NCBI GenBank assembly: GCA_944325155.1
Contig: CALUYY010000009.1
Location: 1-64,000, forward strand
Source: Candidatus Gastranaerophilales bacterium
Lineage (GTDB): Bacteria; Cyanobacteriota; Vampirovibrionia; Gastranaerophilales; Gastranaerophilaceae
Reading direction: 5' to 3'
DNA: 64,000 nucleotides
The notes beneath the pieces were generated by a model. That model did no database searches, had not been told where the DNA came from, and saw nothing but the letters and a program-made list of their open reading frames with translations. The first letter of the stretch is position 1; the number at the start of each line of letters is the position of its first letter. Positions 2,964 to 55,921 of the stretch are shown in pieces. The position numbers and the translations under genes were made by a program.

Positions 2964-3497
2964 ATGCAAATTTCACCCGTTAATAATTTAAATTTTAGTG
3001 GCAGTGTTTACCTTGATAAAATTCAAACCGCAAAAGAAATTGCTAAAATTTCCGAATGTTTCCCGCAAATTTCTGATATCGACGAATTTAAAAAGGATGA
3101 GCAGGTTCAAAGTTTTATAGGAAATATTAATACCCTAAAATCAAGACTGCAGCAAAACACCCCCGATATTAACAGCTATGAAATAAGTTTTAATCTGGGT
3201 TGTGAAAATAATTACAGCGCTTTTGTTACCGTTTATGACAGAAACAACGAGCATTCGTCAATGAGTTATGTTGATTTATGCCAGCATTTATCATCCGTTA
3301 ATCTTAATGTCCAAAGAAGAGCAAGCGGGGAAAGAATTTTTGAAAGTGCTTTTAAACCGGTTTATGAATCTGTCATTAAGCGTGCATGCGGACCCCAAAA
3401 GCACACGGCGCCGAATAGCGATGAGCCTTCTTATTCAAAACGGGAATTAAAACAATTAAGTGAAAAAGAAAAATACGTTTTTGACAGACTTATTTAA
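2964..3497 (+). CDS. Uncharacterised lineage-type protein with F-S-G N-terminus
   Basis: A 177-residue protein not recognised as a named family. The first residues, MQISPVNNLNFSGSVYLDK, carry a short F-S-G motif near residue 12 of a kind recurrent in gut Melainabacteria proteins. The rest is soluble, mixed alpha/beta, and ends in a charged Ser/Lys/Glu-rich tail. There is no membrane helix and no classical signal peptide. The start at 2964 has AGAGAAGGA about 9 bases upstream; an in-frame ATG at 2886 lacks one. The stop codon overlaps the pdxJ stop by four bases (convergent). The 276 bases upstream contain small inverted repeats (TGGTG..CACCA at 2781-2799) but no convincing promoter. Confidence 0.7.
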   Translation: MQISPVNNLNFSGSVYLDKIQTAKEIAKISECFPQISDIDEFKKDEQVQSFIGNINTLKSRLQQNTPDINSYEISFNLGCENNYSAFVTVYDRNNEHSSMSYVDLCQHLSSVNLNVQRRASGERIFESAFKPVYESVIKRACGPQKHTAPNSDEPSYSKRELKQLSEKEKYVFDRLI

Positions 3498-11151: not shown

Positions 11152-11464
11152 GAAGATAAAATAAATAACTTTGAAAATTGAATAATTCCATTTGTGTCGG
11201 AGTGGCACTCTGCCGACGAGAAAGCAACTAAATGTTGCTTTCGATGGAGAGGGCAAAAGCGAAAGCGATTGCTCCGCCACGAAGATAAAATAAATAACTT
11301 TGAAAATTGAATAATTCCATTTGTGTCGGAGTGGCACTCTGCCGACGAGAAAGCAACTAAATGTTGCTTTCGATGGAGAGGGCAAAAGCGAAAGCGATTG
11401 CTCCGCCACGAAGATAAAATAAATAACTTTGAAAATTGAATAATTCCATTTGTGTCGGAGTGGC
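11152..11464 (+). repeat. 129-bp tandem repeat running into tRNA-Leu
   Basis: Two identical 129-bp units (11152-11280 and 11281-11409) are followed by the first 55 bases of a third (11410-11464), which merges into tRNA-Leu. Each unit holds about 45 bases of AT-rich sequence that abuts the tRNA in the third copy, then the first 11 bases of the tRNA (GTCGGAGTGGC), then about 70 bases with an 8-bp hairpin AAAGCAAC/GTTGCTTT. Each unit ends in TCCGCCAC, the reverse complement of tRNA bases 7-14. Because 129 is divisible by three, frames stay open across it on the minus strand, but these look spurious. Confidence 0.95.
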
Positions 11465-11534
11465 GGAATGGTAGACGCGCACGTTTGAGGGGCGTGTGGA
11501 GAAATCTGTACGGGTTCAAGTCCCGTCTTCGACA
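11454..11534 (+). tRNA. tRNA-Leu (GAG)
   Basis: An 81-base class II tRNA. The acceptor GTCGGAG pairs with CTTCGAC, with discriminator A at 11534. The anticodon loop TTTGAGG gives GAG. A variable arm (TGGAGAAATCTGTA) and the T-loop GGTTCAAGTCC are present. No CCA is encoded. A T run follows directly and may act as a terminator. Confidence 0.95.
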
Positions 11535-11597
11535 ATTTTTTAGAGTCTCCATGAAGAGACTCTATTTTAGTAATAGAATTGTTTTTATGGGTTTCTG

Positions 11598-14669: not shown

Positions 14670-15386
14670 ATGATTACAAAAATTTCAAATTCAACGCCTT
14701 TTACAAGCACCTATAAAGCAATTTATGATAAAAGCGCAGGAACAAGAGGTTTTATTGCGCTTGATAATTATTCGGACAGTCAGGATATACCGTATCTGAA
14801 TGTTTTTCATAATGACGGCACGGTTTCAAAAGTTATATATGCAAAAGGAAAAGAATTTGACGCCGATATCGAATCAATTCTTGCATCTTACGGCGTAAAA
14901 TTTGAAAAATACGACCCGAATGAATTATTAACCCCCGAATCTATCGATAAAAGAGTTAAAAAACCGGAAAGCGCTTCAAGAAATTCAATTATTGCATATG
15001 TTAATCCCGATAAATTAAACGAATTAACAAAAACCCAAACACAAGGAAACATTGACCATTGCAGAAATGATTACAACGATTATTATAAAAAAGAAACAAA
15101 AAGAATTCTTGAAACTCCGTCTTCAATAACGGCTCCGACTATGTATATTATACCCGATATGGCGGGCTCTGTTGACGATACGGTAAAATATATAAAAAGA
15201 TACGGAAGCGAAAATCTTAATCCCGATTCTCTTTTGATTGATTTTTCACAAAGAACGGATGAGCCCGATCATTGTTTGTTTTTTGCAATGGAGGATGCGG
15301 GTATGAAAGAAATCCCCGTTTGTGTGGACCCTGAAACGTATAAAATCGGTAAGGCAATAGGGCTTATAACAGGCTATAAAAAATAA
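14670..15386 (+). CDS. Uncharacterised protein, lineage-type N-terminus
   Basis: A 238-residue protein not recognised as a known family. It opens MITKISNSTPFTSTYKA, with an F-T-S motif near residue 11 comparable to the F-S-G and F-T-G starts of two other proteins in the window. The body is soluble and mixed alpha/beta, with PTMYIIPDMAGSVDDTVKYI and a final FFAMEDAGMKEIPVCVD; no catalytic motif is evident. AAGGAA lies upstream of the ATG. It stands alone between gap and slt and ends before a strong hairpin. Confidence 0.65.
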   Translation: MITKISNSTPFTSTYKAIYDKSAGTRGFIALDNYSDSQDIPYLNVFHNDGTVSKVIYAKGKEFDADIESILASYGVKFEKYDPNELLTPESIDKRVKKPESASRNSIIAYVNPDKLNELTKTQTQGNIDHCRNDYNDYYKKETKRILETPSSITAPTMYIIPDMAGSVDDTVKYIKRYGSENLNPDSLLIDFSQRTDEPDHCLFFAMEDAGMKEIPVCVDPETYKIGKAIGLITGYKK

Positions 15387-25227: not shown

Positions 25228-25241
25228 TCTTTATATATATA

Positions 25242-25273
25242 AAAAAGACCTCTTTATTAAAGGGGTCTTTTTT
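25242..25273 (+). terminator. Terminator of the infA-rpsI operon
   Basis: The arm AAAAGACC-TCTTT pairs with AAGGGGTCTTTT, with a long T tail. Confidence 0.88.
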
Positions 25274-25308
25274 TGTTTAAAAATTTTATTTATACGTTTT
25301 AAATTTAT

Positions 25309-27414
25309 ATGCAAATTCAAAACTTTTCTTTGAATTTTAATTCATACAATAAAATAAATTTTAATAAAAGCCCTTTTTTAATTAAGCCCGTCAGTGTTGA
25401 TACAGTTTTATTTACGGGTAAAAAAAGAAATAAAAATAACGGGGGCTTATATCGTTTTGCCGATAAATTATACGATGCGGACGAAAGATATATAAATTCT
25501 TTGGATATATCAAATGAAAGAAGATATGTTTTATTAAAACTTCATTCCTTAAGAAATAATTATCATCAAAAAGCTTATCCCGATTTATATTTAAAATCTT
25601 TTGAAAATGAGGATTGTGTCAGCGAAGAAAGTATTCAAAACATAATAAAAAGAAATCTTTTGGATGGAGAAAAACAGCATTCTTTTATATATGCGCTTAA
25701 AGAATTTGCACAAATTGATGATGATAAGTGGGAAAAAATAAAAGCGTTTGCATTTCCTATGTATCAGGTTTTTTACGAAACATCCGCTCTTGATTTTATT
25801 GACGGATATAAAAAAGGAGAAATCGGATTTGACGAATTAATTTTAAATTATTCAAAGAATAAAATTTTAAGTCTTTTCGGGATAACGGGAGCAAAACAAA
25901 GAGCGGGCAATATGAAAAAATATGTTGAGCCTGCTATTGAAAAATTGCAAAAAGGCGATGTTCAATCAAGCAATCTGGGTATGATTTTGGATTTAATTCA
26001 AGACGGCGTTCTTTCAAATAAATTTTTATATTCAATTACTTTGGATACAAAACTCAATAAAGAAGCGGAAGATGACCTTGAAAGACTATATTTTGCTTAT
26101 ATAAACGGGTTAAATATTGAAGATGTTTTTGTTCCTTCTTTTGAATTTGAAAAAGAAGCTCTTGAACAAATTCCCGTCGGAGAAGTTTGTAATATTAAAG
26201 GGGAAAGTCATATAAGAATTAAAACAAGCGATAAGACATTAACCCACATTCAGCTTTCAAAAAATGCTTATATGAAACTTTTTCCTCCCGTTCAAAGATA
26301 TTCTGCAATACAGCCGGATGAACTGGGGGATTGTTATTTGGTTGCCGTTTTTGATTCAATTTATTCAAACCCCAATACAAGGGACAGAATTTTAAGACTA
26401 TTCAAAGAAAACGATGACGGCTCAATAAGCGTTAATTTTGACGGGTGGCAATATAAAAACGGTGTTATTAAAGAAAGAAACAAAGATGAAAAAACATATA
26501 CATTTGATTTACTGCCCGATTACAATTCAATACTTGCCGAAACCCCGATGGCTCTAAGGCTTATTGAAAATGCTTATGATAATAATAAAGAAGACGGCGC
26601 TTATTTTGATATTATGAGAAGATACGGTGCTTTCAGAAAAGCTCTTAAACACTATCCCGATTCTCAAATAATTCCCGTTGAAGGCAGAGAATATTCAAAA
26701 GAAGAGGTCTTAGATTATATTTCAAAAATTGATATGTTAAAGAAGGTAAGCCCGAGAAAAAATTTAACCTCATATTTTGCCTCTCTTGCGCAGAAAGGAA
26801 AAATAATAGTAATTCCTTTTTCAAATAATGACGGCACAAGAGAAGAAAAGATTGATGAAATAATAGCAAAAATGAAAAAAAGACAATATGATGTTACCCG
26901 ATATGATATAAAATATCTTGAATATTTGAAAAAAAGACCACTGAATTCCGGAGATAAAAATTCTTTCGGCTATATATTAAGCGATGAAATTATGCCCTGG
27001 AATGTTTATAATTTTTTATTGTCGGGTGAAGACGAAAATGCAAACAGCCGTTACAAAATATACAGAAACGGCGGGAATCCCAAAGAAATTTTTGAATTAT
27101 TCAAATTAAGAGCGGAACAATATTCAACGGAAGAATTTATTAAACAATTAAATGATAAAGAAATGCGATTAAAATATCTAAACGGCAAATATTCATTTGC
27201 GGTGTCAACAAAAAAAGACGCAAAACAGGTAAGAAATACAAACCTTGTTCCTAACCACTGTTATTCACTTTGTTTATCGGATAATGACGGCGAAATTAAA
27301 TTTTTGATAAAAAATCCCCATAATTCTTCCCAAAGTCTTGAATTAAACCCGGATGAGATTAAAGAAAATTTTGATTTTATAACATCTGCAAAAAAGGGCG
27401 GTTTTAGGTATTAA
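25309..27414 (+). CDS. Calpain-like (C2 papain-fold) cysteine protease, lineage-type N-terminus
   Basis: A 701-residue protein. The second half carries the three catalytic positions of a calpain fold in the right order: C342 in DELGDCYLVAVFDSIYS, H650 in VPNHCYSLCL and N669 in FLIKNPHNSS. Between C342 and H650 lie about 300 residues, longer than in classical calpains and including a Lys-rich insertion. The first 340 residues are helical and unrecognised, with an N-terminal MQIQNFSLNFNSYN and FTGKKR at residues about 35-40. No signal peptide or membrane helix is seen. An intact triad suggests an active protease with an unknown target. No clear ribosome binding site is visible. It is a single gene between two terminators. 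Confidence 0.75.
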   Translation: MQIQNFSLNFNSYNKINFNKSPFLIKPVSVDTVLFTGKKRNKNNGGLYRFADKLYDADERYINSLDISNERRYVLLKLHSLRNNYHQKAYPDLYLKSFENEDCVSEESIQNIIKRNLLDGEKQHSFIYALKEFAQIDDDKWEKIKAFAFPMYQVFYETSALDFIDGYKKGEIGFDELILNYSKNKILSLFGITGAKQRAGNMKKYVEPAIEKLQKGDVQSSNLGMILDLIQDGVLSNKFLYSITLDTKLNKEAEDDLERLYFAYINGLNIEDVFVPSFEFEKEALEQIPVGEVCNIKGESHIRIKTSDKTLTHIQLSKNAYMKLFPPVQRYSAIQPDELGDCYLVAVFDSIYSNPNTRDRILRLFKENDDGSISVNFDGWQYKNGVIKERNKDEKTYTFDLLPDYNSILAETPMALRLIENAYDNNKEDGAYFDIMRRYGAFRKALKHYPDSQIIPVEGREYSKEEVLDYISKIDMLKKVSPRKNLTSYFASLAQKGKIIVIPFSNNDGTREEKIDEIIAKMKKRQYDVTRYDIKYLEYLKKRPLNSGDKNSFGYILSDEIMPWNVYNFLLSGEDENANSRYKIYRNGGNPKEIFELFKLRAEQYSTEEFIKQLNDKEMRLKYLNGKYSFAVSTKKDAKQVRNTNLVPNHCYSLCLSDNDGEIKFLIKNPHNSSQSLELNPDEIKENFDFITSAKKGGFRY

Positions 27415-27419
27415 ACATT

Positions 27420-27451
27420 AAAAACCCCTTCTTTATAAAGAAGGGGTTTTT
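27420..27451. terminator. Bidirectional terminator, protease / rplL
   Basis: A perfect 32-base palindrome, AAAAACCCCTTCTTTA and its reverse complement. Confidence 0.9.
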
Positions 27452-27473
27452 AAAAACGTTCAAACGGTTAAAA

Positions 27474-27854
27474 CTATTTGATTTCAACGGTAGCGCCTGC
27501 TTCTTCAAGTTTTTTCTTGAGTTCTTCGGCTTCTTCTTTTTTAACGTTTTCTTTAATCGGTTTGGGAGCGCCGTCTACTAAATCTTTAGCTTCTTTTAAG
27601 CCAAGACCGGTGATTTCTCTAACGATTTTTAATACCGGAATTTTGTTAGCGCCGGCTGAAGCCAAAACAACCGTTACTTCGGAAGGAGCGTCTGCAGCGG
27701 CAGCATCACCTGCAGCAGCAGCGGGAGCAGCAGCAACCGCAACGGGAGCAGCAGCTGACACACCGAATTTTTCTTCCATAGCTTTAACTAATTCGCTTGC
27801 TTCGATAAGCGTTAATTTTTCGATTGATTCTAAGATTGCTTCTACATTACTCAT
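27474..27854 (-). CDS. rplL: Ribosomal protein L7/L12
   Basis: A 126-residue stalk protein that recruits translational GTPases. The N-terminal dimerisation domain (1-35) is followed by an Ala/Pro-rich hinge (about 36-58) and the C-terminal domain with [42 protein letters not shown] good ribosome binding site (AGGAGA) is present. It lies 34 bases after rplJ. The opposite strand also has a long open frame here, caused by the biased Ala/Lys codons. Confidence 0.98.
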
Positions 27855-55108: not shown

Positions 55109-55921
55109 TTATTGTGCATTAAATGAATCGTTTGACATATCCATTTCCATTTCCCCACCCATAAAAACATCGTCATTCGATGTTATGTCAGATGTTGTTT
55201 CTCTTTTATCCCTGTTTAGAGTTGAGGAATAAAAAGAGCCTATCAGTTCGCTTTGTTCAAGATAGCCGCTTGAATTTGCATCAAGATTATTAAACATATT
55301 TTCAATTGCCGTATTTCTTTGGGCATTTGTTATGCCGTCCGTTGCAAATTGTGAGCCGTATTTTGATTCAAAACCGTTTAAATCGAGTCCTTTGTCTTCT
55401 TTTTCGTCTTTATCTTCTTTTTCATCGCTCTTATCTTCCGCTTTTTCCGGTTCTTCGTCATTGCCGAAATTATAAAATTCGTCGTAATCTACGGCTTCAT
55501 ATTCATCTATATCATACATAGGTTCGGGTAAATCCATAATGTTGGAGCCGTCGCCCATAATTTTATTTCCCGCAAGGTTAAAAGTGAAATCGTTATTATA
55601 CGATTGCATTAAGGGTGAAATAGGTCCGTTTGACAATTCGCCGACGGAATATATTGAAGCTATTTCTTCAAATTTTGAATTTTCAAAAGGATTTTCGTTT
55701 AAAGAAACCCTTTGCACCATAATATCAGGAGAACTTACACCGTTAAAAATGCTTGATGAAATTGTAAGACTTTGTTTTTCATCGGCGTCTTTAATACTGT
55801 CGATATGGTTATCGGATTCAACCTGCCTTATGGCTTTATTTAAGTCTTTGGTTTTAATTCCGTTTTCTCTCAGCGTGCTTTTTAATCCGTTGTAGTCGAA
55901 TTTTCCTGACAAATCTGTCAT
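55109..55921 (-). CDS. EF-hand domain acidic protein
   Basis: A 270-residue acidic protein. One EF-hand loop is clear near the C-terminus: D214-A-N216-S-S218-G-Y-L-E-Q-S-E225, with Asp, Asn, Ser and Glu at the calcium-binding positions. A second EF-like helix may precede it. A Lys/Glu/Asp-rich stretch lies at about 155-180. No signal peptide or membrane helix is seen. A calcium-responsive scaffold is possible; the family is unknown. AGAGGA precedes the ATG. Confidence 0.72.
   Translation of the reverse strand: MTDLSGKFDYNGLKSTLRENGIKTKDLNKAIRQVESDNHIDSIKDADEKQSLTISSSIFNGVSSPDIMVQRVSLNENPFENSKFEEIASIYSVGELSNGPISPLMQSYNNDFTFNLAGNKIMGDGSNIMDLPEPMYDIDEYEAVDYDEFYNFGNDEEPEKAEDKSDEKEDKDEKEDKGLDLNGFESKYGSQFATDGITNAQRNTAIENMFNNLDANSSGYLEQSELIGSFYSSTLNRDKRETTSDITSNDDVFMGGEMEMDMSNDSFNAQ

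What the first reader, a model, noticed from the sequence alone, without database searches (positions are those of the whole stretch)
25309..27414. Lineage-type calpain-like cysteine protease with intact triad
C342 (DELGDCYLVAVFDSIYS), H650 (VPNHCYSLCL) and N669 (FLIKNPHNSS) match the calpain-family catalytic positions, but 300 residues separate Cys and His, and the first 340 residues look unlike known domains. The start has the lineage F-T-G motif. Bacterial calpains are sporadic and mostly uncharacterised.
Basis: partly seen in the sequence, partly recalled or inferred. Interest (0 to 1): 0.62.

Follow-up and report, generated by a model that had tools for sequence, protein, structure and literature searches.

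The report
Divergent calpain-like protease of gut cyanobacteria
A non-photosynthetic gut cyanobacterium carries a strongly diverged relative of the calpain proteases known from animal cells; it belongs to a large, fast-changing protease family that this bacterial order has expanded and that the held literature does not describe.

Summary
The ORF at 25309-27414 (701 aa) keeps C342, H650 and N669, plus the oxyanion glutamine Q335. Q, C, H and the motif glutamate E420 are invariant in 45 relatives, and N669 is N in 43 and D in 2. A 45-member profile matches solved human calpains (calpain-9, E = 9e-8), although P0001 alone falls below Pfam's C2 cut-off. The predicted structure's best PDB matches are all calpain protease cores (Z 13.0, 205 residues, 3.5 Å); unrelated clan-CA folds follow at Z about 8. 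The 308-residue Cys-His gap comes from a family-wide variable insertion between E420 and G588 (32-191 aa; 168 here).

This is a new subfamily of calpain-type peptidases in the Gastranaerophilales. It carries an extra upstream module ending in LFPPvxRF, separates in a tree from plain cyanobacterial calpains, and also forms domains of 1,200-3,500 aa proteins. Calpain-like genes occur in 88 of 146 genomes of the order, so they are not sporadic here. The gene sits in a variable rpsI-rplL slot and is only about 28-30% identical to same-slot relatives whose neighbours are 70-97% identical. The enzyme identification is strong. An exported, effector-like role is inference. The F-T-G leader is real but only weakly supported.

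The parts
25309..27414 (+). ORF of 701 aa, calpain-like cysteine peptidase (P0001)
25241..25275 (+). Terminator-like hairpin with T run after rpsI, upstream of the ORF
   Evidence: seen by eye; not listed by the consensus scan
25309..25587 (+). Residues 1-93: N-rich leader of very low model confidence (pLDDT about 30-40), no strongly hydrophobic stretch
25411..25419 (+). F35-T36-G37 of the lineage leader
25588..26124 (+). Residues 94-272: all-helical module without Pfam or clear fold match
26125..26301 (+). Residues 273-331: family-specific beta hairpin (GDVxxxxGxxxIxIK) and LFPPvxRF motif, leading into the catalytic core
   Evidence: hairpin resembles the collagen XV/XVIII trimerisation domain weakly
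26260..26583 (+). Residues 318-425: first catalytic subdomain (PC1-like), with Q335, C342 and E420
26311..26313 (+). Q335, oxyanion-hole glutamine
   Evidence: invariant in 45
26332..26334 (+). C342, nucleophile at the start of helix 342-353
26584..27063 (+). Residues 426-585: variable insertion that separates Cys and His; partly low confidence
27064..27411 (+). Residues 586-701: second catalytic subdomain (PC2-like), with G588-G589, H650 and N669
27256..27258 (+). H650, general base, directly before strand 651-659
27313..27315 (+). N669, orienting asparagine at the end of strand 662-669
   Evidence: N in 43, D in 2
27418..27453 (.). Hairpin between the converging ends of this gene and rplL, terminator-like on the minus strand

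Best explanation
It is a calpain-type (clan CA, family C2) cysteine endopeptidase of a Gastranaerophilales bacterium. C342 is the nucleophile, H650 the base, N669 orients the histidine and Q335 forms the oxyanion hole; both halves of the calpain core are present, joined by a loop domain of about 150 residues. Conserved residues and predicted fold are shown here; catalysis is inferred from them. The core lacks the acidic residues of the two calpain calcium sites at the positions checked, so control by calcium is unlikely and control by the upstream module and insertion is more likely (inferred). Most likely it is an accessory, effector-like protease. It is made without a classical signal peptide but with the lineage's N-terminal leader (MxIxx(I/V)N..FxG), and would be exported to act on proteins of neighbours or host, while other family members are carried on giant surface-type proteins. 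Probabilities: calpain-type peptidase fold and active site 0.93; active protease 0.85; exported effector-like role 0.45.
For: Invariant Q-C-E-H and near-invariant N in 45 relatives at 16-28% identity. Profile hits to many distinct calpain sequences in the PDB, best E = 9.2e-8, aligned at QGxLGDC, GG, HAYS and NPW. Predicted model, pLDDT above 90 over most of the core, with Cys at a helix start, His before a strand and Asn at the end of the next, as in papain-like folds. The top 21 PDB matches are all calpains, Z 13.0 down to 8.5. PF00648 is the commonest Pfam match in the family (33 of 45 members, best 4e-9). Tree: one subfamily apart from plain calpains, 96/95. For an accessory role: variable gene content between rpsI and rplL in sister genomes, and 28-30% identity for same-slot homologues next to neighbours at 70-97%; absence from several complete sister genomes; tandem paralogues. 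For a surface or outside role of relatives: domains at the C-terminus or inside proteins of up to about 3,500 aa, with LysM or repeats like those of haemolysin-type calcium-binding proteins. Leader test in an independent gene set: odds ratio 3.3, p = 0.018, none at control positions.
Against: P0001 alone is below Pfam's C2 cut-off (16.0 against 23.8 bits). Foldseek's best E is only 1.1e-3, probably because the large insertion breaks the core. Q335-C342 spacing is 7, not 6; only 4 of 45 members have this. Triad distances were not measured. No expression, secretion or substrate data exist. No signal peptide or strongly hydrophobic N-terminus is seen (Kyte-Doolittle only), which fits a cytosolic enzyme equally well. 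The leader statistics are modest and the pattern was chosen after looking at the first set.
Confidence: 0.55

Rival explanations
1. A cytosolic calpain-like protease for internal regulation or stress, with the leader serving another purpose (folding, binding inside the cell) or none.
For: No hydrophobic signal. Most bacterial calpains lack signal peptides (PMC4631099: only 3 of 66 have one). Eukaryotic calpains are mostly cytosolic. The gene sits beside ribosomal protein operons on the same strand.
Against: A hairpin with T run separates it from rpsI. The gene is missing or replaced at this slot in sister genomes and diverges much faster than its neighbours. Several relatives are fused to domains typical of the cell surface.
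Confidence: 0.33
2. A self-processing protease domain: it cleaves its own N-terminal module or leader to mature or release it; in the giant relatives it would release parts of the chain.
For: In the giant proteins the domain often lies at the C-terminus, and some have two copies. Calpains are known to autodigest (PMC4631099).
Against: The stand-alone members have little to release, and no conserved cleavage site was sought or found.
Confidence: 0.12
3. A non-catalytic calpain homologue that only binds proteins.
For: Non-peptidase calpain homologues exist in eukaryotes (PMC4631099). Q-C spacing is off by one residue.
Against: Every catalytic residue is kept in P0001, and Q, C and H are invariant in 45 members, which is not expected without catalysis.
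Confidence: 0.06

Closest known systems
Calpain protease core, peptidase family C2 (human calpains 1, 3 and 9; PF00648)
   Same: Q-C-H-N residues, motifs GDC[YW], LExAY, GG, HxY and NP[WH], and the two-part core fold.
   Different: About 150-residue insertion between the E and GG motifs; no calcium-site acids at the positions checked; no C2-like or penta-EF-hand domains; extra N-terminal helical module and hairpin.
Bacterial and cyanobacterial calpains (PMC4631099, PMC9380684), e.g. loci L152-L156 from elsewhere in the phylum
   Same: Same catalytic core, often no signal peptide, peptidase domain usually C-terminal, varied architectures.
   Different: Separate side of the tree (96/95); LFPPvxRF module and large insertion; wide spread in one order. 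Neither paper's main text mentions Melainabacteria, and no paper held pairs Gastranaerophil- or Melainabacteria with calpain.
Tpr protease of Porphyromonas gingivalis (according to PMC4631099 the only biochemically studied bacterial calpain)
   Same: Bacterial C2 peptidase.
   Different: Not compared by sequence here.
Papain-like toxins and peptidases of clan CA (CDI toxins, C39 domains, staphopain, phytochelatin synthase)
   Same: Same general papain-like fold and Cys-His order.
   Different: Z about 8, fewer aligned residues (116-171) and 5-14% identity, against Z 13 and 205 residues for calpains.

Membership tests
Calpain family C2 (protease core) | Cys-His-Asn triad in this order | tested here: met
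   C342, H650, N669; C and H invariant, N in 43 and D in 2 of 45. D at this place is tolerated in a known functional C2 peptidase, yeast PalB (PMC4631099).
Calpain family C2 (protease core) | Oxyanion-hole glutamine before the cysteine | tested here: met
   Q335 invariant in 45; spacing 7 here, 6 in 41 members.
Calpain family C2 (protease core) | Sequence homology to C2 peptidases beyond the cysteine motif | tested here: met
   Profile of 45 members against calpain-9 E = 9.2e-8 in two stretches that cover Cys and GG-His-Asn. P0001 alone is below the Pfam cut-off: 16.0 against 23.8 bits.
Calpain family C2 (protease core) | Calpain protease core fold (PC1 + PC2) | tested here: met
   Model pLDDT 78.6, pTM 0.79; the best 21 PDB rows are all calpains, best Z 13.0, 205 aligned, 3.5 Å.
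Calpain family C2 (protease core) | Proteolytic activity | not testable with these tools
   No assay.
Classical (eukaryotic, calcium-regulated) calpain | Calcium sites 1 and 2 in the core and penta-EF-hand domain | tested here: not met
   Position of calpain-2 D96 is never Asp in 45 members (E in 2) and that of E292 is E in 1 (positions from PMC4631099). No EF-hand in P0001. So not filed as a classical calpain.
Lineage FxG-leader proteins | MxIxx(I/V)N-type start followed by FxG within 60 residues, enriched over controls | tested here: met
   P0001: MQIQNFSLN...LFTG. Odds ratio 4.1, p = 0.006 in this genome's sample (pattern chosen there; control windows weaker, p = 0.05 and 0.11); odds ratio 3.3, p = 0.018 in other genomes, controls 0.94 and 0.45. 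Function unknown.
Anti-phage defence or phage proteins | Match to PADLOC or PHROGs models | tested here: not met
   No match for P0001; none in phage or plasmid records.

The most novel reading that the evidence does not exclude
Gastranaerophilales have turned the calpain core into a diversified set of exported proteases. Stand-alone enzymes such as this one would be delivered through an undescribed N-terminal leader (MxIxx(I/V)N..FxG), and sister domains would sit on giant surface proteins, giving a calpain-based arsenal for acting on host or competitor proteins in the gut.
Probability: 0.2. Interest if true: 0.75.

Novelty: new variant of a known kind. Interest (0 to 1): 0.45.

Why it matters
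Bacterial calpains are described as rare and almost unstudied. Here one order of gut bacteria has them in most genomes, in many copies and in architectures from 280 to about 3,500 residues. That gives a rich natural set for testing how calpain cores are controlled without calcium, and points to proteases by which an uncultivated, common gut lineage may touch its host or neighbours.

Tried and rejected
Single-sequence search of the PDB gave only a chance hit to a kinase. NCBIfam, PADLOC and PHROGs gave nothing for P0001. Viral contigs, phages and plasmids hold no relative. The N-terminal part folded alone gave no clear match: Foldseek best E 1.1, VIA best Z 3.9. Its hairpin (residues about 273-316) resembles the collagen XV/XVIII trimerisation domain (42-43 residues, 1.9-2.3 Å, Z 3.5-3.6), too short to claim. 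Weak MavC-like rows (Z 2.5) were rejected as chance. Chance similarity of the active-site motif alone was rejected because the triad is invariant across the family. A co-transcribed ribosomal gene was judged unlikely because of the hairpin with T run after rpsI.

Full report
What was checked. The ORF at 25309-27414 (+) is intact, 701 codons, first start ATG at 25309. The gene lies between rpsI (ends 25227) and the converging rplL (27474-27854). A hairpin with a T run is visible after rpsI (by eye), and another hairpin separates the two converging genes.

Host.

Family. P0001 alone gives only a sub-threshold Pfam match (PF00648, E = 0.0064). Homologues were found in 20 of 58 searched genomes, the own genome among them, and as 39 loci in species genomes; those whose record title names a lineage are Gastranaerophilales, Galligastranaerophilus, Melainabacteria or Cyanobacteria. 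An alignment of 45 has Q335, C342, E420, H650, Y652 and P670 invariant, with L324, F325, P326, R330, G340 and N669 nearly so. A profile of these 45 matches human calpain-9 at E = 9.2e-8 and other calpains, aligned at the Cys motif and at the GG, His and Asn motifs. PF00648 matches 33 of 45 members, best E = 4e-9.

Fold. The predicted model (pLDDT 78.6, pTM 0.79) is confident over most of 131-480 and 590-696; residues 1-93 are not modelled with confidence, and parts of the insertion (480-590) are weak. The 21 best PDB rows are all calpains (Z 13.0 to 8.5, about 190-210 residues, 3.2-4.5 Å), followed by other papain-like folds at about Z 8 mixed with a few more calpain rows. C342 opens a helix, H650 precedes a strand and N669 ends the next strand, which is the papain/calpain arrangement.

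The long gap. The spacing E420 to G588 varies from 32 to 191 residues in the family (168 here), while His-Asn spacing stays at 15-22. The 308-residue Cys-His gap is therefore an insertion between the two halves of an ordinary core; the family's Cys-His distances run from 176 to 334 in this alignment, and the shortest seen in other relatives is 158.

The first 317 residues. Residues 94-272 are helical and match no Pfam family or clear fold. Residues 273-331 carry a hairpin and the LFPPvxRF motif, which mark the subfamily. The hairpin resembles the collagen XV/XVIII trimerisation domain over 42-43 residues (Z 3.5-3.6), a lead only.

Calcium. Positions of calpain-2 D96 and E292 (sites as listed in PMC4631099) are not acidic in P0001 and almost never in relatives, in line with that paper's statement that bacterial homologues mostly lack the sites. 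Calcium control of this enzyme is unlikely.

Spread and evolution. With the family profile, 88 of 146 genomes of the order match at E <= 1e-6, up to ten matches each; this tally includes plain calpains, and one gene can give two matches. The own genome has four calpain-like loci. Fourteen genomes from elsewhere in the phylum match more weakly. A tree of 57 cores puts plain calpains of the order and those from elsewhere in the phylum on one side of a branch (96/95), and P0001 in a 13-member clade (100/99) on the other. The core stands alone, in tandem (L069 has three), or within proteins of up to about 3,500 aa, sometimes twice. Some large relatives carry LysM, FHA or EF-hand-like stretches.

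The slot. Between rpsI and rplL, or directly after rpsI, sister genomes have a calpain (two genomes, 28-30% identical over the aligned part, next to rpsI 96-97%, rpoA 92%, truA 72%), a different 434-aa leader-type protein, a membrane protein that looks like a glycosyltransferase, or a regulator and a pilin-like gene. The gene is accessory and either evolves very fast or has been exchanged.

Leader. In 464 kb of this genome, proteins that start MxIxx(I/V)N carry FxG within 60 residues more often than others (8 of 19 against 60 of 395, p = 0.006; the pattern was chosen here, and the control windows gave weaker enrichment, p = 0.05 and 0.11). In an independent set from other genomes the figures are 7 of 21 against 59 of 450 (p = 0.018), with none at control windows. 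About half of the stand-alone calpains seen have it. It is a real but loosely defined lineage feature of unknown function.

Mechanism. Shown: conserved catalytic set, calpain fold in a predicted model, insertion, accessory setting. Inferred: C342-H650-N669 catalysis with Q335 as oxyanion hole; calcium-independent control; export and effector-like use. Export is the weakest step; a cytosolic protease is the main rival (0.33).

Novelty. Calpains in bacteria and in cyanobacteria are known (PMC4631099, PMC9380684), including haemolysin-type repeats before the peptidase domain in Gloeobacter. New here are the subfamily with its upstream module and insertion, its wide use in one gut order, and the link to the leader. 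No paper in the held library pairs calpain with Gastranaerophil- or Melainabacteria. Verdict: a new variant of a known kind, interest 0.45.

Noticed in passing
window 25228-27473, with L120-L126: The rpsI-rplL slot is an accessory-gene spot: calpain, another leader protein, a glycosyltransferase-like membrane protein or other genes in sister genomes.
   Followed up: partly
window 2964-3497 (inner Met of the ORF at 2886), 14670-15386; L095:3400-3915, L101:8559-10286, L104:7740-8507 and others: Further proteins of this genome start MxIxx(I/V)N, most with a nearby FxG: a possible lineage-wide N-terminal signal.
   Followed up: partly
L152:1163-2551, L153:1373-2755 (genomes elsewhere in the phylum); N-termini of the large relatives L143, L145, L150: Bacterial calpains with EF-hand stretches at the N-terminus. 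PF00036 is above its cut-off in L152 and L153, below it in the large relatives. Bacterial calpains were described as lacking calcium-binding sites.
   Followed up: partly
L130:436-3153 (G000 contig C15): Own-genome 906-aa protein with a calpain-like region followed by a phosphoribosyltransferase domain of the PRTase-CE / PADLOC PRTase_III-A type; its active-site motif was not found by a simple pattern.
   Followed up: no
window 11152-11464: Perfect 129-bp tandem repeat (2.4 copies) overlapping the start of the tRNA-Leu gene at 11453-11535.
   Followed up: no
window 55109-55921: Predicted 270-aa protein with an EF-hand-like loop (DANSSGYLEQSE) near its C-terminus.
   Followed up: no
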